This document shows, one piece after another, positions 6,089-33,448 of a stretch of 42,000 nt of DNA. Both the position numbers and the translations under genes were made by a program. This DNA is from Candidatus Cloacimonadota bacterium (lineage in GTDB: Bacteria > Cloacimonadota > Cloacimonadia > Cloacimonadales > JAFGVF01): positions 1 to 42,000 of the forward strand of contig JAEKNW010000265.1 of assembly GCA_016838885.1 (NCBI GenBank), written 5' to 3'. The number at the start of each line of letters is the position of its first letter. Within the stretch, counting starts at the first letter, position 1. The notes under the pieces were generated by a model. The model searched no databases. It had not been told where the DNA came from and saw nothing but the letters and a program-made list of their open reading frames with translations.

Positions 6089-7315
6089 GTGAAAGGTGTA
6101 TTAGCATTATATTGGGTTACGCTTAAAAGATTGAAAAGCTCTTCATGGGGCAAGAATTCTCTCTTTATGATCATTGGAATTATTATTGCTGTGGGGACAT
6201 TAACCCTTTCAATGATCCTGTTTGAAAGCTATGAAAAAACATTAGTTAATGCATTCAAAGTAGCTCAACCTGATATTTTGATAAATCATAATTATATGCT
6301 CACAGAAGGCAATCAAGAAGAACTAGAGTCTATTCTTGATGCTTACAAGTCGGAGATTATGGCTATTGAGCAAAAACAAAGAATATCTGTTATAATTAAC
6401 AGAGGTGATTCTAACAAACCGGCCTATATTGAATCCTTTTCTGAAGATAACACTAATTTTAATCAACTCATGTACTCTTTTACAAAGCAAAAGGATTTCC
6501 ACCTTTCTGATAATGAGATTATCTTAGGGGAGTATTTAGCAAAAGAGTTAAATGTTCAAGTAGGGGAAGAAGTCAATGTTATCATTCCCAGCTCAATTAG
6601 ATATTCAATCTTTGGACTGGTAAAGAAAGCAGAGAAGTTTCTTGTAAGAGATATTGAGAGAACAGGACTTTATGAAATTGATGTATATCGTGCAATTGTT
6701 AATAAATCAAGGGTGGAACTGTTGGTTGGTGATAATGATTCAGGCATAAGTACTTATCTTTTGTTGAATGATCGAAGTCAAGATAATAGCAGATTAGTGG
6801 CTGGTGAGCTTAATAGAATATTTATGAATCGACTTCCTCAAGTGCAAGCCTTTGATTTAATCTCAAAGAATTCAGTAATATTCTCAGCCCTATCATTGCA
6901 AAAAGTGATGATATTCTTAATCTTATGCATTATAGTCATAGTTGCTAGTTTCAATGTAATAAGTACTGTTAGTACAATAATTATTGAGAAAATCAATGAG
7001 ATTGGGATTTTAATGACTTTAGGGTTAAAAAGAAAGGAAATTAAATTCATCTACTTTACTTTCTCTTTAATCTTAGCTCATATTGGAATAGTGATAGGAT
7101 TGATTCTTGGTTATGGAAGTGCCTACTGGCTTACCAGTCAGGATTATTTCTCGCTGAAAGGAGATATTTATTTCATAGATAAAATATTGATAAATCCTTC
7201 AGCATTGATGTTTTTAACAATATATATAACAACAATATTTGTAATATCTACAACAATTTTTCTCTCCTTGAGAAATATAAATAAATTAGAAATTATTAGT
7301 ATAATGAGACAATAA
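6089..7315 (+). CDS. Lipoprotein-releasing ABC permease, LolC/LolE-like (FtsX/MacB fold)
   Basis: Inner-membrane permease of the family that extracts lipoproteins for transfer to the outer membrane. Topology is typical: one transmembrane helix at about 24-46, a roughly 210-residue periplasmic domain, then three helices at about 267-297, 317-345 and 372-395 (the FtsX domain). The cytoplasmic turn INEIGILMTLGLKRKEIKFIYF matches the coupling-helix region of LolC/E and MacB. Starts with GTG 2 nt after the RodZ-like stop. Only one permease gene is present, so the transporter may be a homodimer (LolF-like) with the ATPase encoded next. A MacB-like exporter cannot be excluded by sequence reading alone, but the LolD-type neighbour favours Lol. 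Confidence 0.85.
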   Translation: MKGVLALYWVTLKRLKSSSWGKNSLFMIIGIIIAVGTLTLSMILFESYEKTLVNAFKVAQPDILINHNYMLTEGNQEELESILDAYKSEIMAIEQKQRISVIINRGDSNKPAYIESFSEDNTNFNQLMYSFTKQKDFHLSDNEIILGEYLAKELNVQVGEEVNVIIPSSIRYSIFGLVKKAEKFLVRDIERTGLYEIDVYRAIVNKSRVELLVGDNDSGISTYLLLNDRSQDNSRLVAGELNRIFMNRLPQVQAFDLISKNSVIFSALSLQKVMIFLILCIIVIVASFNVISTVSTIIIEKINEIGILMTLGLKRKEIKFIYFTFSLILAHIGIVIGLILGYGSAYWLTSQDYFSLKGDIYFIDKILINPSALMFLTIYITTIFVISTTIFLSLRNINKLEIISIMRQ

Positions 7316-7316
7316 T

Positions 7317-7982
7317 ATGCATATCATAAAATTAAATAATGTAAGCAAAAGTTACCTTGAAGATAAGAAAAAATTACAGGTGTTAAAGAGTATAAATCTG
7401 ACTGTAGAAGAGGGCGAATTTGTAGCTATAACAGGGACTTCCGGTTGCGGTAAGAGCACACTTCTGCATTTGATAGGTTTATTAGATTCCCCTGATTCTG
7501 GTGAGATAAATCTAGCAGGAGAATCCTGTAACTCTATTAGCAATATGGAGATCTTTAGAAATAGAAATATAGGTTTCATCTTTCAGTTTCACTACCTTTT
7601 AGATGACTTCACTGCTTTGGAAAATGTGATGATTCCCTTGTTAGTACAAGGCTATAAGAAAGCTGAAGCTGTTAAATTGGCTTCTGAAGTAATAATATCA
7701 TTAGGAATTGGTCAGAGGATGCATCATTTCCCTAATCAGTTAAGTGGGGGAGAAGAGCAGAGGATTGCCATTGCCAGAGCCATAGTTACCAAACCAAAGA
7801 TTCTCTTAGCAGATGAACCTTCTGGTAACTTAGATGAAGAAACTACCCAGAATGTGATTTCTATATTGCGTGATTTAAATAAAAAGGGATTAACAATAAT
7901 CTTCGTTACTCATGATTTAAACCTTGTTAAAGAAGATGATAGTCATTATACCATAAAAGAGGGTAAATTAATCCAAGCATGA
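7317..7982 (+). CDS. lolD: Lipoprotein-releasing system ATPase
   Basis: ABC ATPase powering the adjacent permease. All motifs are intact: Walker A GTSGCGKST at 40-48, Q-loop FIFQFHYLLDDFTALENV at 88-104, signature LSGGEEQR at 142-149, Walker B ILLADE at 162-167 and H-loop His199 in VTHD. The Q-loop region and length (221) fit the LolD/MacB subfamily. It begins 1 nt after the permease stop and its end overlaps tamB by 4 nt (ATGA). The signature is GGEEQR rather than the common GGERQR or GGQQQR, a conservative change. Confidence 0.93.
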   Translation: MHIIKLNNVSKSYLEDKKKLQVLKSINLTVEEGEFVAITGTSGCGKSTLLHLIGLLDSPDSGEINLAGESCNSISNMEIFRNRNIGFIFQFHYLLDDFTALENVMIPLLVQGYKKAEAVKLASEVIISLGIGQRMHHFPNQLSGGEEQRIAIARAIVTKPKILLADEPSGNLDEETTQNVISILRDLNKKGLTIIFVTHDLNLVKEDDSHYTIKEGKLIQA

Positions 7983-22341: not shown

Positions 22342-23250
22342 ATGGAAACCCAAGAGATGATTAATGAGATAAATAGATTGAAGAAAGAGAAAAATGTAGT
22401 AATTTTAGCCCATAATTATGTAACTTTAGATGTTCAGGATATAGCTGATTTTGTAGGAGATTCCTTGCAGTTATCCATCGAGGCAAGCAAAGTTAAAGCT
22501 GATATTATTTTATTTTGTGGAGTTAGGTTCATGGCAGAGACTGCTAAAATATTATCTCCTCAAACAAAAGTTTTATTACCTGTTGAAGATGCAGGTTGTC
22601 CTATGGCTGATATGATAACAGGTGAGCAATTGAGACAGTTTAAAAACAATCATCCAAACGCTCTTGTGATGTGTTATGTGAATTCTACTGCAGAAGTTAA
22701 GGCGGAGAGTGATATTTGTTGCACCTCTTCCAATGCTGTTAAGATTATCGAGACTTTACCTAGAGATCAGAAAATACTCTTCGTACCAGACCAAAATCTA
22801 GGCACTTATGCAGCCCATCAAACTAAAAGACATATAATAGTCTGGGATGGCTATTGTCCTGTTCATCATATCAAGATGACTAAACAAGATGTCTTGGATA
22901 TGAAGAAACAATATCCAAAACACAAGTTGTTGGTTCATCCCGAATGCCCAACAGAAATAATTAAATATGCTCATGTTGTCGCTTCTACTAAGGGAATGGC
23001 TGATTATGCAAAAGAACACGATAATCTCATTATTGGAACTGAAGTTGGCCTATTTGAGCAGATCAAACGCGACAACCCTGATAAAAGTATTCTCCCTTTA
23101 GCAAGCAAAGCAATCTGTGTTAATATGAAGAAAATCCATTTAAAAGATGTGTTGACAAGTTTGCAAACAGAACAGTATGAAATCACTCTTTCTGAAGAGC
23201 TAAGAAAAGCTGCGAAAAAGAGTATTGATGCAATGTTGAAACTATCTTAA
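22342..23250 (+). CDS. nadA: Quinolinate synthase
   Basis: Iron-sulfur enzyme that condenses iminoaspartate with dihydroxyacetone phosphate to quinolinate for NAD synthesis. Clear family marks are VVILAHNYVTLDVQDIADFVGDSL (about 20-43), CGVRFMAETAK, DAGCPMADM, and VHPECPTEI, which supply the cluster cysteines, plus DQNLGTYAA. Start at ATG 22342 (GAGGA just upstream) rather than TTG 22330; 302 residues, the length of the shorter archaeal/thermophile-type NadA. nadB and nadC are not in the window. Its stop overlaps the next gene (TAATG). Confidence 0.96.
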   Translation: METQEMINEINRLKKEKNVVILAHNYVTLDVQDIADFVGDSLQLSIEASKVKADIILFCGVRFMAETAKILSPQTKVLLPVEDAGCPMADMITGEQLRQFKNNHPNALVMCYVNSTAEVKAESDICCTSSNAVKIIETLPRDQKILFVPDQNLGTYAAHQTKRHIIVWDGYCPVHHIKMTKQDVLDMKKQYPKHKLLVHPECPTEIIKYAHVVASTKGMADYAKEHDNLIIGTEVGLFEQIKRDNPDKSILPLASKAICVNMKKIHLKDVLTSLQTEQYEITLSEELRKAAKKSIDAMLKLS

Positions 23251-23888
23251 TGATTAATGCTTTCTGGTTAGAAGAAAATACTTCTTTAGTAAAATTACCT
23301 GATGGGTCTTCACTCTATCAACACAGGCAAGGACAAAAGATATCATCCGATAATCAATTCTTTAATGATCATTTGATTGAAAGATTTAGTAATCAAAATG
23401 GCCAAGTTAAGAGAGTATTAGAACTCGGTGTCGGAAATGGTATTAACGTAATTATTCTTAAAAAAAAGTTTCCTGACTGGACGATAACAGGGATTGAGAT
23501 TGATTCTGAACAAGCTCAACTGGCTTCTTATAACTGTAAGGTACAGAATCTTGGTATAGTTATAATTAATGAGGACTTAAGAGACTTAAAAAATGAAGAT
23601 AACTATGATTTAATCATAGCAAATCCTCCCTATATAAAGATGGGAAGTGGGAAGCTATCTGCACATGAAAGAACTAATATTGCAAAATTTGAGTTGACTT
23701 GTACCATGGAAGATCTAATATTGGCAATAAAGAGAAATCTCTCTGATGCTGGTGAGGCATGGCTACTTTATAAGCAGGAAAGAGAAGAGGATTTACGCGA
23801 AAACATTAATCAATCAAATTTAGAAGTAATTGATATTATGAAAAAAGGAAAAATAATTATTGTAGGATTAAAACATGTTGCAAGTTAA
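23250..23888 (+). CDS. SAM-dependent methyltransferase (TrmN6/HemK-like)
   Basis: Class I methyltransferase with motif I VLELGVGNGINV (56-67), acidic end of strand 2 IEID (82-85) and the catalytic IANPPYIK (123-130). This NPPY type acts on exocyclic amino groups of adenine, guanine or glutamine. The N-terminal region lacks the PrmC helical domain. The sequence between motif I and NPPY and the early LPDGSSLYQHRQGQKISSDN segment resemble tRNA1(Val) A37 N6-methyltransferase, so a tRNA or rRNA substrate is my guess. It overlaps nadA by 1 nt and the FtsE-like gene by 14 nt. Confidence 0.8.
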   Translation: MINAFWLEENTSLVKLPDGSSLYQHRQGQKISSDNQFFNDHLIERFSNQNGQVKRVLELGVGNGINVIILKKKFPDWTITGIEIDSEQAQLASYNCKVQNLGIVIINEDLRDLKNEDNYDLIIANPPYIKMGSGKLSAHERTNIAKFELTCTMEDLILAIKRNLSDAGEAWLLYKQEREEDLRENINQSNLEVIDIMKKGKIIIVGLKHVAS

Positions 23889-24468
23889 TGATTTAGAGAT
23901 AATTAAAAATAAACGAATAATCTTAGAAGTCCCAGAGTTGACTCTAGAAAGCTCAACTATTAATGCCTTGGTAGGAGAGGAGAAATCCGGAAAGAGCTTG
24001 TTAACTAGAGTGATTCATGGTTTATATCCAGATTATCGAGGAGTTATCGAATTTCATAATTATGATAAAGACAAGTGTAATTCTTATCTAATAACAAAAG
24101 ATGTAATATTGCTAACTAAAGCTACTATATCAGATAATTTTGCTATATGCTCAAAACAGCAATATGAGTTGATTAGTGAATACTCGAATTTGGCAGGCTT
24201 AGAGAATGATATTGAGAGAGATATCACAGACTTATCTTACTACAAACAGAAATTAGTTGAGTTAGTTATAGCTTGTGGGGTAAATCCACTGATATTGATT
24301 ATTGATGATTTCGATAAGTATTTTGGTGCTCAAAGTTTAATTCTTGCCGGAAAAGTATTATCGAAATACAAAACTGGTGGAGGTATTGTATTACTTACTT
24401 CCAATCTCAAGATACCTGAGATGGATTCCACTTACAAAATAGAAAATAGCAAGGTATTAAAAGCATGA
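23875..24468 (+). CDS. Degenerate ABC ATPase, FtsE-like
   Basis: ABC-type nucleotide-binding protein (197 residues) directly ahead of an FtsX-like permease. Walker A is kept (GEEKSGKS, 34-41) and a Walker B strand is visible (LILIID, 139-144). However, the signature is LSYYK instead of LSGGQ (120-124), the catalytic Glu after Walker B is Asp145, and the H-loop histidine is replaced (TSN, 175-177). It is thus likely to bind ATP but hydrolyse it poorly or not at all. Its gene overlaps both neighbours (14 nt and 4 nt), so it is translated with the permease. The frame is open and the codon use matches neighbours, so this is not a pseudogene. Confidence 0.75.
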   Translation: MLQVNDLEIIKNKRIILEVPELTLESSTINALVGEEKSGKSLLTRVIHGLYPDYRGVIEFHNYDKDKCNSYLITKDVILLTKATISDNFAICSKQQYELISEYSNLAGLENDIERDITDLSYYKQKLVELVIACGVNPLILIIDDFDKYFGAQSLILAGKVLSKYKTGGGIVLLTSNLKIPEMDSTYKIENSKVLKA

Positions 24469-25421
24469 AACAGAGATTTATAACCCTGAATTCTGTTATA
24501 ATAATCCTTTTTACTTTGCTGCTCTTAGCTCATATAAATTATTTTAAACTAAAAGATTTAGCAATTGGTGAAACTGCTATTAATGAGCTCAATCTCAGGG
24601 AAAATGAAAATTTACAAAAACTTACTTCTATAAAATTTACAGTATATAATACAAGAACAAACGACCTTAATCAAATCAGAAATGATATAATGGCAATTTT
24701 TCAAGAATCCGATTTTAGCAGCATAACTATTCTTCCAAAAGCTGCTTTTATTGATTCATTATTGCACGATAGTAAGCTCAAAGATTATATCTCTAACACA
24801 AATTTTACCAAATATAATCAGTCCTTGATTAATAAAATGAAACTCTATTCTCCTAATGAGTTACTAATTTCTTTTCTCCCCAAGAAGCAGACAATTGACC
24901 AGATTCACTCTATTAACGAGTATTTACAAGACAACGGATATATTCTTATTAGTGATGGAAATATCCCTGCCATAAAATCTGACATCAAACACTACTATTT
25001 TAATAAAGCAATGTTCGAAGAATTAGAAGGAGAATTATCTGAGCTAACAGGGAAAAAATATAACTTACAGGGATTCAAAGCTAGTAATCGAATAATCGAA
25101 ATTGCTTTCTTGATAGTAATAATGATTTTTGCATCTATCTTTGTTCAGCTATTAGATTATTATTTACTAAAAGCCAATTTAGAGAGATTCAAATTCCTCT
25201 TGAAAGGCCATATAAATCCAAGAAAGTATCTGAAAACAGTGATTTTACTCAAGTCAATAAGTTTGGCTTTAATCTTCCTATGTAGCATTTTATGGTTAAT
25301 ACGTGGACTATTAGTAAAAAATAACTCATTAATAGAACCTTTCTTTGTTGTTTTGCTGGCTTTCACAGCCTTAGTCAACATCGTAGTTTATGTGATAAAG
25401 AAGGAAAAGGTTAATTTATAA
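24465..25421 (+). CDS. ftsX: FtsX-like membrane protein
   Basis: Four predicted transmembrane segments arranged 1+3: about 11-29, then a roughly 180-residue extracytoplasmic domain, then about 212-234, 258-278 and 290-308. This is the FtsX topology (short N-terminus, one periplasmic loop, three helices) and the gene follows an FtsE-like ATPase by a 4-nt overlap. FtsX signals to peptidoglycan hydrolases at the septum. The sequence itself is divergent; I could not recognise the classic FtsX C-terminal motif, so the name rests on topology and context. pgsA follows by 1 nt, fitting an envelope/division cluster. Confidence 0.68.
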   Translation: MKQRFITLNSVIIILFTLLLLAHINYFKLKDLAIGETAINELNLRENENLQKLTSIKFTVYNTRTNDLNQIRNDIMAIFQESDFSSITILPKAAFIDSLLHDSKLKDYISNTNFTKYNQSLINKMKLYSPNELLISFLPKKQTIDQIHSINEYLQDNGYILISDGNIPAIKSDIKHYYFNKAMFEELEGELSELTGKKYNLQGFKASNRIIEIAFLIVIMIFASIFVQLLDYYLLKANLERFKFLLKGHINPRKYLKTVILLKSISLALIFLCSILWLIRGLLVKNNSLIEPFFVVLLAFTALVNIVVYVIKKEKVNL

Positions 25422-25422
25422 T

Positions 25423-25962
25423 ATGAAACATATCCCAAATATACTTACATTACTTAGAGTAATCCTAGTTCCCTTTTTTATCTACTACTTTACTCAAGGC
25501 CAACTGATGCTGGCTTTTAGTTTGTTTATTATCGCCTCTGTTACTGATTATTTTGATGGTTATCTAGCACGAAAATATAATGTGATATCTAATTTTGGTA
25601 AGATAATGGACCCCTTAGCTGATAAACTATTAGTTCTCTCAGCCCTAGCTCTCTTAAGCTTCGGTAGTCATAATTACCTCTCTATCTGGATTTTTATAAT
25701 CATAACTCTTAGAGAGCTCGTAATTACTATCCTAAGAGATATATATAAGAAAAAGAAGATTTTCATGGCAGCTAATAACTGGGGAAAAATTAAAACTGTT
25801 ACTCAAATGGTCGGCTTAACACTATCTCTATTTCTTTTAGCTATAAATATTAACTTAGCAGATTATTTACTATACTTAAATATCTATTTCTGGGGAGTAG
25901 CAATTGTTACTATCCTCTCAGGATGGTCTTATCTTAAAAATATGAAGGAGCTTTTCAATTGA
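25423..25962 (+). CDS. pgsA: CDP-diacylglycerol-glycerol-3-phosphate 3-phosphatidyltransferase
   Basis: Makes phosphatidylglycerophosphate from CDP-diacylglycerol and glycerol-3-phosphate, the committed step to phosphatidylglycerol. The CDP-alcohol phosphotransferase motif is complete: D42-x2-D45-G46-x2-A49-R50-x8-G59-x3-D63-x3-D67. The opening HIPNILTLLRVILVPFF and later hydrophobic helices match PgsA; 179 residues is a normal length. It begins 1 nt after the FtsX-like gene, and its stop overlaps the TTG start of the next lipoprotein gene. Confidence 0.95.
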   Translation: MKHIPNILTLLRVILVPFFIYYFTQGQLMLAFSLFIIASVTDYFDGYLARKYNVISNFGKIMDPLADKLLVLSALALLSFGSHNYLSIWIFIIITLRELVITILRDIYKKKKIFMAANNWGKIKTVTQMVGLTLSLFLLAININLADYLLYLNIYFWGVAIVTILSGWSYLKNMKELFN

Positions 25963-27035
25963 AGTATATAGTTATTATTTTATTAACCATAGTTATGTTT
26001 ACTGGGTGTGATAATACTCAGAAAGGCTATATGCCAATTCCAGAATTCACTGATAACAGTAAGCCGGTCTCTTATGGAAACCATCAAGATGTTTATCTCT
26101 TTTCAAACCAAGAACAGAGTAATGACATCAGAAATCTAATGAAAAAAGAGTTTGGTTTCCCTCTAGAAGGAGCTCAAAAAGAGAAGACTTTTGAACTTTT
26201 ATGGAAGCGTTTTCAAGATTTTGAAGAGTTCAAGAAAGCCAAAAATGTAATGTTCATCTGTAACTTGGGAATCCAAGATTCTTTTACTTCTTTTGTTCGA
26301 TCAAAAATACCTCGGGATAAGTTAGATGGAGTTATCAATGGCTCATCTACTATAATTACTTATCAAAATGAGTGGTCAGATGATCAACTGGTAACATTTA
26401 TCTTAGCTCAAGATGAGAATAGCCTGGAAAATATTATTCTTGCAAGAAGTACAAATTTATATCAAGATTTTGCTAAAAGATTCTTGAATAGAATGACCAG
26501 AAGAGTATATTATCGAGGAACACTAAAGGGAAATGAGTTTCAGGATTATCCCTATTCACTGAAAATTCCCTCGACTTTCCAAGTCTATAAAGAAGATAAA
26601 AGTCAGAATATGATTAGTTTTATTCATAGATATAAAAAGAAGGATACTACTCTTCCTGATAAATTTTTCTCAATATATATGGAAAAAATGGATGAAGGAG
26701 AACTCACTGAAGAGTGGGTAAAAAATGTCCGTAAGGAAATAGGTACCAAGATACTAGATGGTGATGAAATTGATTGGATGAGAACTAAAATGCTAGCAAA
26801 AACTTTTACCACCTGGGATAACATCAATTATTATGGTTATATTCTTGAAGGTGCTTGGGAGAATGATTCTACAAAAATGGGAGGATCTTTTAAAAGTTAT
26901 GCATTTTATGACAGACAAACTAAAGCAGGTTATTTTATTGATACTGCTGTTTATTATCCGGCAGGAACTAAAGTTCCATATCTTGCAGAATTAGAAGGTA
27001 TTGCAAAATCATTTAATATAAAGGAGCAGAAATGA
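25959..27035 (+). CDS. DUF4837-like lipoprotein
   Basis: Starts with TTG at 25959, with AAGGAG 8 nt upstream; the TTG overlaps the pgsA TGA. Lipobox FTGC with Cys17, then a roughly 340-residue soluble domain. The pattern (KNVMFICNL early, then DQLVTFILAQDENSLENIIL, a helix, then YPYSLKIPSTFQVYKED and a repeated second half) resembles the DUF4837 lipoproteins found mainly in Bacteroidota; this is recognition from memory, not a search. The residue after the Cys is Asp, the inner-membrane retention signal in enterobacteria, but whether that rule holds in this phylum is unknown. Function unknown. Confidence 0.65.
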   Translation: MKYIVIILLTIVMFTGCDNTQKGYMPIPEFTDNSKPVSYGNHQDVYLFSNQEQSNDIRNLMKKEFGFPLEGAQKEKTFELLWKRFQDFEEFKKAKNVMFICNLGIQDSFTSFVRSKIPRDKLDGVINGSSTIITYQNEWSDDQLVTFILAQDENSLENIILARSTNLYQDFAKRFLNRMTRRVYYRGTLKGNEFQDYPYSLKIPSTFQVYKEDKSQNMISFIHRYKKKDTTLPDKFFSIYMEKMDEGELTEEWVKNVRKEIGTKILDGDEIDWMRTKMLAKTFTTWDNINYYGYILEGAWENDSTKMGGSFKSYAFYDRQTKAGYFIDTAVYYPAGTKVPYLAELEGIAKSFNIKEQK

Positions 27036-30660: not shown

Positions 30661-31896
30661 ATGTCTGAAGTAGCATTAATTTTTTTCTTTCTAGCAGTAT
30701 CACTCTTACTGTCAATACTTACTAGCAGGGGAGTATCTCTTCTCAAGGCTCCCTTACTTTTAGGATATATCATTACCGGAGCAATAGTCGGCATTTTATT
30801 AGATATTTCAATTCCTATAAGTAATCCTTGGCAATTTAGAGCTGATGATTATGAGATTGTAAATATCATTACCTTGTCATTAATCGGTTTTGGTATTGGA
30901 ACTGAGTTAGAATACAAAGAACTCAAGAAGGTGGGGAAAACAGTCTTCTGGATAACTCTTTTTGAAGCTACACTAACTTTCTTTGTTGTGAGTTTGGTAG
31001 TTTCATTTCTACTTCATTTTACTATGGGATGGAAGATTGCTGTTCCTATGGGATTACTCTTTGGCTCTTTCGCTTCTGCTACAGCCCCAGCAGGTACTGT
31101 AGATGTAATCAAGCAATATAAAGCATCGGGAAACTTAGTAACAACTCTTTATGCAGTGCTAGGCTTAGATGATATTTTTGCCCTTCTCATTTTCACTATT
31201 ACTCTACCAATATCAATAATGCTATTAGGTTCTGATCAGTTAAGTCTCGGTGTTGCCCTATTTCATGCTGTAATTGAGATATTATTATCAGTTGGAATTG
31301 GTTCGGCAGTTGGATATGGGCTAGCTTATTTTGGTAAAAAAATTCATGAAAAATTTATGGTAACTTATCTCTCATTGGGTAGTATTTTGTTAATGTGTGC
31401 TCTTGCCGAACAGTTTGAGTTATCACCAATTCTGATAAATATGTTTGCCGGAATAGTAGTAGTTAACAGAAGTAAACTTATCGCAAGAAAACTAAATATG
31501 GCACTTACTGATTGGTCACCACCCATTTATGTCTGGTTTTTTGTCTTGATAGGTACCAGGCTTGACATCCATTTAATCCAGAAGTTCTGGTTGTTAATTA
31601 TAGTTTATATAGCTGCTACTATGCTGGGTAAGTATAACGGTGCTTATCTTGGTGCAGTTGTAGCAAAAGCACCTACCAAGATTAGAAAGTATTTAGGATT
31701 TACCTTATTATCTCAGGCAGGGGTAGCAATAGGGTTATCAATTGCAGCAAGTAAATATTTAATGAGTGCAGGATACCCCAATGAAGCTAAATTAGTTACT
31801 TCTGTAATGACTATGACAACCTTTTTAATTATGATGATAGCTCCCAATTTTGTTAAATATGGGCTTATCAAATCAGGTGAAGCAAAGATCCACTAA
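30661..31896 (+). CDS. CPA2-family cation:proton antiporter, copy 1
   Basis: Membrane antiporter of about 12-13 helices (411 residues) without any C-terminal RCK/TrkA domain. The two-aspartate ion site in GLDDIFALL (Asp170-Asp171), rather than Asn/Gln-Asp, is that of electrogenic NapA/NhaA-like Na+/H+ exchangers. The ATAPAG segment at 140-145 matches the unwound crossing helix. The second crossing region is probably LLSQAGVAIGLSIAASKYL near the C-terminus. It is clearly paralogous to the gene at 32249 (shared TAPAGT, DVI.QYKASGNL, GLDDI.ALL.). Probable role: Na+ or K+ and pH balance. Confidence 0.88.
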   Translation: MSEVALIFFFLAVSLLLSILTSRGVSLLKAPLLLGYIITGAIVGILLDISIPISNPWQFRADDYEIVNIITLSLIGFGIGTELEYKELKKVGKTVFWITLFEATLTFFVVSLVVSFLLHFTMGWKIAVPMGLLFGSFASATAPAGTVDVIKQYKASGNLVTTLYAVLGLDDIFALLIFTITLPISIMLLGSDQLSLGVALFHAVIEILLSVGIGSAVGYGLAYFGKKIHEKFMVTYLSLGSILLMCALAEQFELSPILINMFAGIVVVNRSKLIARKLNMALTDWSPPIYVWFFVLIGTRLDIHLIQKFWLLIIVYIAATMLGKYNGAYLGAVVAKAPTKIRKYLGFTLLSQAGVAIGLSIAASKYLMSAGYPNEAKLVTSVMTMTTFLIMMIAPNFVKYGLIKSGEAKIH

Positions 31897-31925
31897 CACT
31901 AAAAAATTAATATCTAGGAGTAATT

Positions 31926-32243
31926 ATGTATATGATATTTCAACTCTTTTATGAGAAGTATATATCTGATGTCTTAATGGCTATTGCTGAAGCCGGTGTA
32001 GAAGATACAATTGTTCTTTCAGGTGAAGCAACAGGGCATAAATTGATATTTGATAATCCACTATTTGCTTCTTTTAGAGATACTTATGGGACTCAGCGTG
32101 ATTATGGTAAGGTTATCATGGGCTTTGCTGATGAAGAACAAGTTGAGTTTATAGTTGACGAGTTAAAACATGCTGGTATAGACATCATTGGAGATGAGTT
32201 AGGTAAAATAATTCTTATAAACTCACATAAAATCTACGGGTAA
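31926..32243 (+). CDS. Small PII-like (ferredoxin-fold) protein
   Basis: 105 residues with alternating strands and helices: an opening strand MIFQLFYEKYISDVLMAIAEAGVEDTIVLSGEA (about 3-35), a variable loop at about 36-55, then KVIMGFADEEQVEFIVDELKHAGIDIIGDELGKIILINSH. This beta-alpha-beta, beta-alpha-beta layout and length match PII/GlnB-like sensors and small trimeric relatives. The specific PII signature is not evident and no T-loop tyrosine can be assigned. AGGAG lies 5 nt before the ATG. It sits between two antiporters, a good place for a cytosolic regulatory subunit. Confidence 0.6.
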   Translation: MYMIFQLFYEKYISDVLMAIAEAGVEDTIVLSGEATGHKLIFDNPLFASFRDTYGTQRDYGKVIMGFADEEQVEFIVDELKHAGIDIIGDELGKIILINSHKIYG

Positions 32244-32248
32244 ATAGC

Positions 32249-33448
32249 ATGGAACAATACCTATTTTTAGGTTTTATTGGTATCTCAATTTTACTTTCAA
32301 TTTTAATGGCCAAAGGAGTATCTCTTTTTCATGCTCCTATGGTATTAGGATACATTCTTGCCGGTGCAGTTATTGGTCAGAGTATTTTTCTTTTTGGAAT
32401 AGATATTAAGTATGATACCTTTGATTTAATTAATTCTATAACTCTCTCACTATTAGGTTTAGGTATTGGTACAGAATTAAAACTAAATGATTTGAAGAAG
32501 TTAGGATCAGGCATCATTACCATAGTGATTTTTGAAGCTACAATGACTTTTCTTTTAGTTGGGGGCGTTGTATATCTAGTTACTCAGAATGTCTCATTAG
32601 GGATAATCTATGGAGCTCTAGCTAGTGCTACTGCTCCAGCTGGTACTACAGATGTAATTAATCAATATAAAGCTTCAGGAAATCTAACTAAAACCCTCTA
32701 TGCAGTGATGGGATTAGACGATATTTATGCCTTGTTAATCTACTCTATTGCTATTCCTATTGCTATCATTTTGTTAGGTTCAAATGAAATTACTGTTGGA
32801 CAAGCTTTAATAAAAGCTGGAATAGAGTTAGTTCTAGCTATTGGAATTGGTATTGGATCAGGATTTTTCATAGTATGGATTATTAAAAAGATTCACGATA
32901 ATATCATAATGCTCTTATTCGCTTTGGGTATGCTTTTCGTCAATTGCTCTATTGCTATAGGATTAGAAATATCTCCAATTTTGTTAAATATGTGTGTTGG
33001 AATAGTGTTAGTTAATAGTAGTAGTTTGCTGTCACGGAAGTTAAATACATCTCTAAGTAGTTGGTCTCCTCCTATCTATGTTATTTTTTTTGTATTAATT
33101 GGGACAAAATTAGACTTTCACATGATTTACGCAAATTGGATTATGATTATAATTTATATACTAACAAGAACAATAGGAAAGTGGAGTGGAGCTTACTTTG
33201 GGTGTAAAATCTCCCATGCTCCCAAGCTTACCACAAAATATCTTGGATTTACTCTTTTATCCCAAGCAGGTGTTGCTATCGGGCTTACCTTGGCTACAGC
33301 TCATTACCTAATTAATGCCGGGTATCAAACGGAAGCTGGACAACTTGTAAGCATCATGGTAGGTACTACCTTCTTAATCATGCTGGCTGGTCCGGCCTCA
33401 GCAAAATATGGATTGAAAAAAGCAGGGGAAATTAAAAAACTGCAATAG
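32249..33448 (+). CDS. CPA2-family cation:proton antiporter, copy 2
   Basis: Second antiporter (399 residues), closely similar to the gene at 30661 through the whole length: ASATAPAGTTDVINQYKASGNL, GLDDIYALL (Asp157-Asp158), SWSPPIYV and LGFTLLSQAGVAIGL. No cytoplasmic regulatory domain. Being encoded as a pair with copy 1 and a small ferredoxin-fold protein between them suggests a heteromeric or duplicated transporter. It starts 5 nt after the PII-like stop. The gene ends at the edge of the repeat island. Confidence 0.88.
   Translation: MEQYLFLGFIGISILLSILMAKGVSLFHAPMVLGYILAGAVIGQSIFLFGIDIKYDTFDLINSITLSLLGLGIGTELKLNDLKKLGSGIITIVIFEATMTFLLVGGVVYLVTQNVSLGIIYGALASATAPAGTTDVINQYKASGNLTKTLYAVMGLDDIYALLIYSIAIPIAIILLGSNEITVGQALIKAGIELVLAIGIGIGSGFFIVWIIKKIHDNIIMLLFALGMLFVNCSIAIGLEISPILLNMCVGIVLVNSSSLLSRKLNTSLSSWSPPIYVIFFVLIGTKLDFHMIYANWIMIIIYILTRTIGKWSGAYFGCKISHAPKLTTKYLGFTLLSQAGVAIGLTLATAHYLINAGYQTEAGQLVSIMVGTTFLIMLAGPASAKYGLKKAGEIKKLQ

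What the first reader, a model, noticed from the sequence alone, without database searches (positions are those of the whole stretch)
23875..25421. FtsEX pair with an ATPase lacking the signature, catalytic Glu and H-loop
The FtsE-like protein keeps a good Walker A (34-41) and a Walker B strand, but has LSYYK for LSGGQ, Asp145 for the catalytic Glu, and TSN in place of the switch histidine. The downstream protein has the 1+3 helix topology of FtsX. FtsE normally hydrolyses ATP to trigger peptidoglycan hydrolases, so this pair may signal by ATP binding only, or have become structural. The genes overlap tightly and are intact.
Basis: partly seen in the sequence, partly recalled or inferred. Interest (0 to 1): 0.5.

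Follow-up and report, generated by a model that had tools for sequence, protein, structure and literature searches.

The report
Division protein FtsX uncoupled from ATPase
In the Cloacimonadota bacteria examined here, the cell-division switch FtsEX appears to have lost its engine: the FtsE-like ATPase next to FtsX has lost its ATP-burning residues or is missing altogether, while FtsX is kept, which suggests that bacteria can run this switch without burning ATP.

Summary
Window 23875-24468 is an intact ABC ATPase with Walker A, but LSYYK for LSGGQ, Asp145 for the catalytic Glu, Asn for the switch His and no Q-loop Gln; 24465-25421 is a diverged FtsX. The phylum is Candidatus Cloacimonadota. In 93 genomes the same slot has the ATPase in 39, FtsX without it in 47, and is undetermined in 7. 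All 39 ATPases share these losses; seven also lost the Walker A Lys. Among close relatives dN/dS is about 0.05-0.11. 0 of 124 genomes hold an FtsE over the curated cut-off; 107 of 124 hold this FtsX. FtsX's FtsE-binding GG motif is kept with the ATPase (37 of 39), lost in the two families without it (0 of 35, 0 of 9), and lost in the window. An EnvC-like protein remains in the genome. Best reading: FtsX-EnvC works without ATP hydrolysis, the FtsE remnant being a structural subunit. FtsX without adjacent ftsE is reported for Fusobacterium; a selected, catalytically dead FtsE was not found in print. No biochemistry was done.

The parts
23875..24468 (+). FtsE-derived ABC ATPase remnant (197 aa): Walker A kept; Q-loop Gln, LSGGQ, catalytic Glu and switch His lost
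23974..23997 (+). Walker A codons, residues 34-41 GEEKSGKS
24232..24246 (+). signature position, residues 120-124 LSYYK (canonical LSGGQ/E)
24304..24309 (+). Walker B Asp144 and Asp145 (Asp in place of the catalytic Glu)
24397..24405 (+). H-loop position, residues 175-177 TSN (no switch His)
24465..25421 (+). diverged FtsX (318 aa, 1+3 helices); start overlaps the ATPase stop by 4 bp
25173..25217 (+). loop between helices 2 and 3 of FtsX (residues 237-251, ANLERFKFLLKGHIN): position of the coupling helix; the W and GG seen in relatives are absent
23250..23888 (+). syntenic neighbour: methyltransferase, overlaps the ATPase start by 14 bp; abuts FtsX in most slots without the ATPase
25423..25962 (+). 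syntenic neighbour: PgsA-type phosphatidyltransferase, used as synteny anchor
25959..27035 (+). syntenic neighbour: DUF4837 protein

Best explanation
This is the FtsEX locus of Candidatus Cloacimonadota. The ATPase has become a hydrolysis-incompetent subunit that is retained under selection in some families, probably as a structural or docking cap on FtsX, and is absent in others. FtsX remains the membrane receiver that positions or activates periplasmic EnvC-like or LytM-type proteins, no longer driven by an FtsE ATP cycle; activation of wall hydrolysis would come from assembly with the divisome or from mechanical or regulated contacts. Shown by sequence: motif loss, its conservation, purifying selection among close relatives, ATPase absence with FtsX kept, loss of the coupling-helix motif, presence of an EnvC-like protein. 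Inferred: no ATP hydrolysis, the structural role, the FtsX-EnvC contact, and the trigger.
For: 39 of 39 slot ATPases have Asp for the catalytic Glu; none has LSGGQ (second Gly is Ser in 38, Tyr in the window); no His (33 Lys, 3 Arg, one each Asn, Ser, Thr); no Gln in the aligned Q-loop column. dN/dS of the ATPase is 0.05-0.11 in the 20 of 26 close-relative pairs with computable dS, including genus g28, whose Walker A Lys is Arg in 7 of 7 fetched. Slots: 39 with ATPase, 47 with FtsX and no ATPase, 7 undetermined, of 93. Not relocated: the ATPase profile scores 192-290 bits on the slot genes of 7 genomes, and at most 89.8 bits anywhere in the 25 f10, 9 f13 and G022 genomes searched. 0 of 124 genomes have an FtsE over the cut-off; 107 of 124 have this FtsX. 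FtsX identity: family profile to P. aeruginosa FtsX E=3.6e-9; ATPase-less relative to FtsX of 8ymc Z=13.0, 261 aligned. GG motif 37 of 39 in ATPase-bearing families, 0 of 35 in f10, 0 of 9 in f13. EnvC-like protein in the window's genome, best PDB match the EnvC chain of the FtsEX-EnvC complex 8i6o, E=3.8e-16. In E. coli one study reports that interaction with EnvC, not ATP hydrolysis, is what FtsEX needs to restore cell separation in an ftsA-mutant background (PMC7343993, passages).
Against: No ATPase or binding assay. Walker A is kept in 32 of 39, which a purely structural subunit would not need. The ATPase is under mostly stronger constraint than FtsX, so it does something specific. ATPase-less order f13 keeps a W..W motif in the FtsX loop, so another cytosolic partner is possible there. 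G022 lacks the ATPase yet keeps GG. Whether f13 lost the gene or never had it depends on the root, which was set, not inferred. The EnvC-like protein is far below NCBIfam's EnvC cut-off (61.6 of 270 bits). E. coli ATPase mutants K41A and E163Q do not complement (PMC7668044, passages).
Confidence: 0.66

Rival explanations
1. Binding-only switch: the remnant still binds ATP (Walker A, Walker B Asp and the Ser of the signature are kept) and signals to FtsX without hydrolysis.
For: Walker A Lys kept in 32 of 39, signature Ser in 39 of 39, Walker B Asp in 39 of 39. For E. coli an abstract states that ATP binding by FtsEX drives the changes in EnvC (PMC12505981, abstract start in the listing).
Against: Lys to Arg in 7 of 7 fetched members of one genus, under purifying selection; Q-loop Gln and second signature Gly lost in all 39; gene absent in 47 slots with FtsX kept.
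Confidence: 0.2
2. Another canonical NBD of the genome, for example a LolD-type ATPase, drives this FtsX in trans.
For: 122 of 124 genomes have NBDs that match the FtsE model at E<=1e-55, below its cut-off. In Fusobacterium nucleatum, whose ftsX locus lacks ftsE, an FtsX pull-down found a cation ABC ATP-binding protein (PMC5915739, passages).
Against: The coupling-helix GG is gone in the window and in 35 of 35 f10 proteins; the three best FtsE-like NBDs of the own genome lie beside FtsX/MacB-type permeases of their own.
Confidence: 0.12
3. The altered site still hydrolyses ATP slowly, with Asp145 or the conserved Asp/Glu two residues on as the base.
For: Asp-Asp-x-Asp/Glu in 39 of 39.
Against: The switch His, Q-loop Gln and second signature Gly are lost as well.
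Confidence: 0.08
4. The pair is not FtsEX but another type VII system (MacB or LolC type).
For: The window FtsX alone has no Pfam FtsX hit, and its VIA-align list mixes MacB, BceAB and FtsX at Z 9.8 to 8.6.
Against: The family profile's only PDB hits below E=0.1 are two FtsX proteins; the nine best Foldseek hits of the ATPase-less relative are FtsX; FtsX_ECD matches 8 of 32 and 4 of 20 members at E<=1, best 3.9e-5 and 4.5e-4.
Confidence: 0.05

Closest known systems
Canonical FtsEX-EnvC (E. coli, P. aeruginosa, V. cholerae)
   Same: ATPase-FtsX gene pair, FtsX 1+3 topology and periplasmic domain, EnvC-like protein in the genome
   Different: Catalytic, signature, Q-loop and H-loop residues of the ATPase lost; coupling-helix motif absent in the window's FtsX; ATPase gene absent in 47 of 86 resolvable slots
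Fusobacterium nucleatum FtsX-EnvC, whose ftsX locus lacks ftsE (PMC5915739, passages seen)
   Same: FtsX without adjacent FtsE, with EnvC; there shown to matter for cell separation
   Different: Here a catalytically dead FtsE is also kept, in ten families (f1-f9, f11), and is absent in two others and one further genome
Type VII ABC systems MacB, LolCDE, BceAB
   Same: Shared fold of the membrane protein
   Different: Their NBD motifs are normally intact (recalled); the sequence profile here points to FtsX
ABC proteins with one degenerate NBD site (recalled)
   Same: Changed catalytic Glu and broken signature
   Different: There a second, canonical site usually remains; this locus encodes one NBD only, so a homodimer would have two dead sites (inference)

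Membership tests
FtsE (TIGR02673) | score above the curated cut-off (264.85 bits) | tested here: not met
   0 of 124 genomes over the cut-off (the best 22 or fewer candidates per genome were scored); 29 of 30 slot ATPases match TIGR02673 at E<=1e-3 (best 3.5e-19), and as many or more match several other NBD families
FtsE (TIGR02673) | Walker A and Walker B Asp | tested here: met
   window GEEKSGKS and IIDD; Walker A Lys in 32 of 39
FtsE (TIGR02673) | LSGGQ/E signature, catalytic Glu, switch His, Q-loop Gln | tested here: not met
   0 of 39 for each; one relative, L101, has a Gln one place before the aligned Q-loop column
FtsE (TIGR02673) | encoded with FtsX | tested here: met
   4-bp overlap in the window and in 31 of 38 other pairs
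FtsE (TIGR02673) | ATP hydrolysis | not testable with these tools
   needs purified protein
FtsX | sequence profile match to FtsX | tested here: met
   family profile to FtsX 8i6o E=3.6e-9 and 8tzj E=1.2e-6; the window protein alone gives no Pfam FtsX hit; it is the own genome's only match to the family profile (E=5.7e-24), of which it is itself a row
FtsX | FtsX_ECD (PF18075) over its cut-off | tested here: inconclusive
   not in the window; 17 of 124 genomes match at E<=0.01, 5 over the cut-off; one of the 17 (G121:C106) is not at the slot
FtsX | 1+3 helix topology with periplasmic domain | tested here: met
   AlphaFold2 models
FtsX | coupling-helix motif between helices 2 and 3 | tested here: not met
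   window has neither W nor GG; 37 of 39 proteins of ATPase-bearing families have GG
EnvC (protein on G000:C284) | sequence similarity over most of its length to EnvC | tested here: met
   residues 31-392 to the EnvC chain of 8i6o, E=3.8e-16
EnvC (protein on G000:C284) | NCBIfam EnvC cut-off (270 bits) | tested here: not met
   61.6 bits, though EnvC is the best-scoring NCBIfam model
EnvC (protein on G000:C284) | binds FtsX | not testable with these tools
   needs experiment

The most novel reading that the evidence does not exclude
A whole phylum runs the FtsX-EnvC cell-wall switch without FtsE ATP hydrolysis. FtsE first became a selected pseudo-ATPase that caps FtsX, then was discarded repeatedly together with the FtsX coupling helix. 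The energy-dependent step of FtsEX would then be a dispensable regulatory layer on an FtsX-EnvC core.
Probability: 0.5. Interest if true: 0.75.

Novelty: new variant of a known kind. Interest (0 to 1): 0.6.

Why it matters
FtsEX is described as a machine in which FtsE's ATP cycle drives FtsX and EnvC, and E. coli ATPase mutants fail to complement (PMC7668044, passages), although one study finds that EnvC interaction rather than hydrolysis suffices for cell separation in an ftsA-mutant background (PMC7343993, passages). A lineage in which the ATPase is dead yet under purifying selection, and in related lineages missing, while FtsX and an EnvC-like protein remain, is a natural experiment on what FtsX does without ATP. 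It offers ready-made FtsX variants for testing which part of the switch needs energy.

Tried and rejected
Canonical FtsEX elsewhere in the genome: not found. The FtsE cut-off is itself imperfect evidence: 7 of 14 control genomes pass it and the answer does not name them. Relocated ATPase in ATPase-less genomes: not found. Pseudogene decay: rejected for the relatives compared, ORFs intact and dN/dS low; dN/dS is crude, since many pairs have dS above 1, and no pair includes the window. Search of 58 genomes with the window FtsX alone gave only weak hits away from the slot and a viral scan none, so synteny through pgsA was used. Genes downstream of DUF4837 were scanned as possible hydrolases in eight loci: weak beta-barrel, TPR, Lamin Tail, trypsin-like or no match. 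In the f10 FtsX set the commonest Pfam match at E<=1 is a chance-like FA_desaturase (7 of 20, best 0.0015) ahead of FtsX_ECD (4 of 20). VIA-align's own note says Z under about 13 can mean only a common arrangement for helical models.

Literature: no paper on a degenerate FtsE or on FtsEX in Cloacimonadota was seen in the listings (open-access PMC; each listing shows only the top papers). The F. nucleatum precedent came up and was read in passages. The review PMC11627006 was read in passages.

Coverage: pgsA was found in 53 of 57 relatives, all 53 slots fetched; in 55 of 70 genomes, 39 slots fetched and 16 not. Locus L133 (a second, distant pgsA of G041) and L174 (G121:C106) were left out. From the FtsX alignment A4 were left out L099, L169, L173 (fragments), L120 (contig edge), L170 and L193 (uncertain starts); its ATPase-bearing group includes L087, whose contig ends before the ATPase. 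From the tree, 9 loci with fewer than three marker genes were dropped; it is a quick LG+G4 tree with SH-aLRT only. G001, G015, G052 and G106 have neither the slot ATPase nor this FtsX: lost or unassembled, not resolved. In one search only 15 own-genome NBDs (on the + strand of their loci) were aligned; one search looked at 29 by simple patterns. Five of the 32 M23-positive loci belong to the genomes that supplied the five query proteins.

Full report
What is there. Window 23875-24468 (+) encodes a 197-aa ABC ATPase and 24465-25421 (+) a 318-aa membrane protein; they overlap by 4 bp, and the ATPase start overlaps the preceding methyltransferase by 14 bp. The ATPase is a true ABC NBD (ABC_tran 40.6 bits, cut-off 25).

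Identity of the membrane protein. Alone, the 318-aa protein matches no FtsX model. Its family, gathered through synteny with pgsA, does: the profile's only PDB hits below E=0.1 are FtsX of 8i6o (P. aeruginosa, 3.6e-9) and of 8tzj (1.2e-6); FtsX_ECD matches 8 of 32 and 4 of 20 members at E<=1 (best 3.9e-5 and 4.5e-4). The ATPase-bearing and f10 halves of the family match profile to profile at probability 99.8. AlphaFold2 models of the window protein (pLDDT 86.6) and of an ATPase-less relative (pLDDT 91.9) show the 1+3 topology. For the relative the nine best Foldseek hits are FtsX (best 1.9e-6), and VIA-align gives FtsX of 8ymc Z=13.0, 4.6 A, 261 aligned. For the window protein Foldseek's best hit is FtsX but weak (E=3.2e-3), and VIA-align mixes MacB, BceAB and FtsX (Z 9.8 to 8.6), so that model alone does not decide.

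Phylum. G011 has one contig of 2,246,820 bases, from memory the size of Ca. Cloacimonas acidaminovorans.

No canonical FtsEX found. 0 of 124 phylum genomes have an FtsE over the TIGR02673 cut-off, against 7 of 14 controls. The own genome has no FtsX_ECD hit over the cut-off, and its three best FtsE-like NBDs (215.9, 214.6, 209.6 bits) lie next to FtsX/MacB-type permeases on C139, C265 (window 6089-7982) and C279. The family FtsX profile matches 107 of 124 genomes (67 of 70 good ones): one match in 105, and a second short piece in G107 and G118.

The slot across the phylum. Of 93 slots (the window, 53 loci, 39), 39 carry the ATPase; 47 have FtsX but no ATPase (36 of family f10, 10 of f13, and G022 of f8); 7 are undetermined (cut by contig or fetch ends, or no FtsX there). 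In 44 of the 47 the methyltransferase abuts FtsX (gap -89 to +24 bp), and in three f10 genomes nadA precedes FtsX directly. In 46 genomes searched with the ATPase profile, slot genes score 192-290 bits in the seven genomes that have one; no other match exceeds 89.8 bits. A tree of six neighbouring proteins (84 genomes) groups the window with f10 (SH-aLRT 98) and needs three changes of ATPase state (f13, f10, G022); the direction depends on the root, which was set on f13.

The shared pattern in the ATPase. In all 39: Asp for the catalytic Glu; no LSGGQ (Ser kept in 39, second Gly replaced by Ser in 38 and Tyr in the window); no His (33 Lys, 3 Arg, one each Asn, Ser, Thr; the window has Asn); no Gln in the aligned Q-loop column (L101 has one a place earlier). 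The Walker A Lys is kept in 32 and is Arg in seven, all of genus g28. In 15 NBDs of the same genome aligned alongside, 14 have Glu, 15 the second signature Gly, 13 the Gln, 15 the His. dN/dS of the ATPase is 0.05-0.11 in the 20 of 26 pairs with computable dS, mostly lower than that of the FtsX partner; these pairs come from three f8 genera, many have dS above 1, and none includes the window.

Coupling helix. The FtsX profile aligns its W-x-I/V-...-GG...R segment with P. aeruginosa FtsX EIEVIKLVGGTDGYVRRPF. In S. pneumoniae FtsX the coupling-helix residues E213, I216, L219 and V220 were proposed to contact FtsE, and mutagenesis showed the interaction to be essential (PMC7468199, passages). In the alignment GG is present in 37 of 39 proteins of ATPase-bearing families, 0 of 35 of f10, 0 of 9 of f13 (which has a W..W of its own), 1 of 1 in G022, and not in the window; an alignment-free count of [SATM]GG in residues 141-260 gives 38 of 39, 2 of 35, 0 of 9, 0 of 1 and 0 of 1. 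The window, sister to ATPase-less f10, has thus lost the FtsX side of the contact while its ATPase gene is intact: it looks like a stage between the two (inference).

Partners. The window's genome has an EnvC-like protein on C284 (397 aa; best PDB match the EnvC chain of the FtsEX-EnvC complex 8i6o, E=3.8e-16, residues 31-392), below NCBIfam's EnvC cut-off. An ATPase-less genome, G028, has a similar one, also below the cut-off, for which NCBIfam's best model is DipM and EnvC the second. An M23 peptidase lies on the same strand upstream of ispA in 32 of 37 loci with at least 900 bases of upstream sequence; the five misses are all f10, and five of the hits are the query genomes themselves. Its N-terminal membrane helix and coiled-coil look were judged by eye. 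In the window's genome the most similar M23 protein of the five found lies elsewhere, on C60.

How it most likely works. FtsX acts as a membrane receiver for EnvC-like or LytM proteins without an FtsE ATP cycle; the FtsE remnant, where kept, is a structural subunit. Shown by sequence are motif loss, selection among relatives, ATPase absence, coupling-motif loss and EnvC-like presence; absence of hydrolysis, the role of the remnant and the trigger are inferred. Against: Walker A is mostly kept, so a binding-only role is possible; no experiment was done.

Known or new. FtsX without an adjacent ftsE is known in Fusobacterium nucleatum, where FtsX and EnvC act in cell separation and the authors suggest that another ATPase may substitute (PMC5915739, passages). 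In E. coli one study already separates EnvC interaction from ATP hydrolysis for cell separation in a mutant background (PMC7343993, passages). A conserved, catalytically dead FtsE, or FtsEX in Cloacimonadota, was not seen in the searches. The finding is a new variant of a known kind.

Noticed in passing
window 6089-7982: An FtsX/MacB-type permease (MacB_PCD plus FtsX domain) directly followed by a canonical LolD-like ATPase with LSGGE and DEP: a built-in contrast to the degenerate pair in the same window.
   Followed up: partly
L102, L104, L130 and others, upstream of ispA: M23 peptidase conserved upstream of ispA in 32 of 37 FtsX loci across five families; candidate FtsX-linked hydrolase.
   Followed up: partly
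L164 (G106, family f12): No FtsX upstream of pgsA and no FtsX profile match in this genome: possible complete loss of FtsEX, or incompleteness (88%).
   Followed up: no
L083, L089, L091 (f10, genus g11): No methyltransferase was found between nadA and FtsX in these three genomes; nadA runs into ftsX.
   Followed up: no
window 30661-33448: Two tandem similar membrane proteins of 411 and 399 aa, antiporter-like by eye.
   Followed up: no
H-loop position of the slot ATPases: The switch His is replaced by Lys or Arg in 36 of 39 remnants, a conserved basic residue that may have a role of its own.
   Followed up: no
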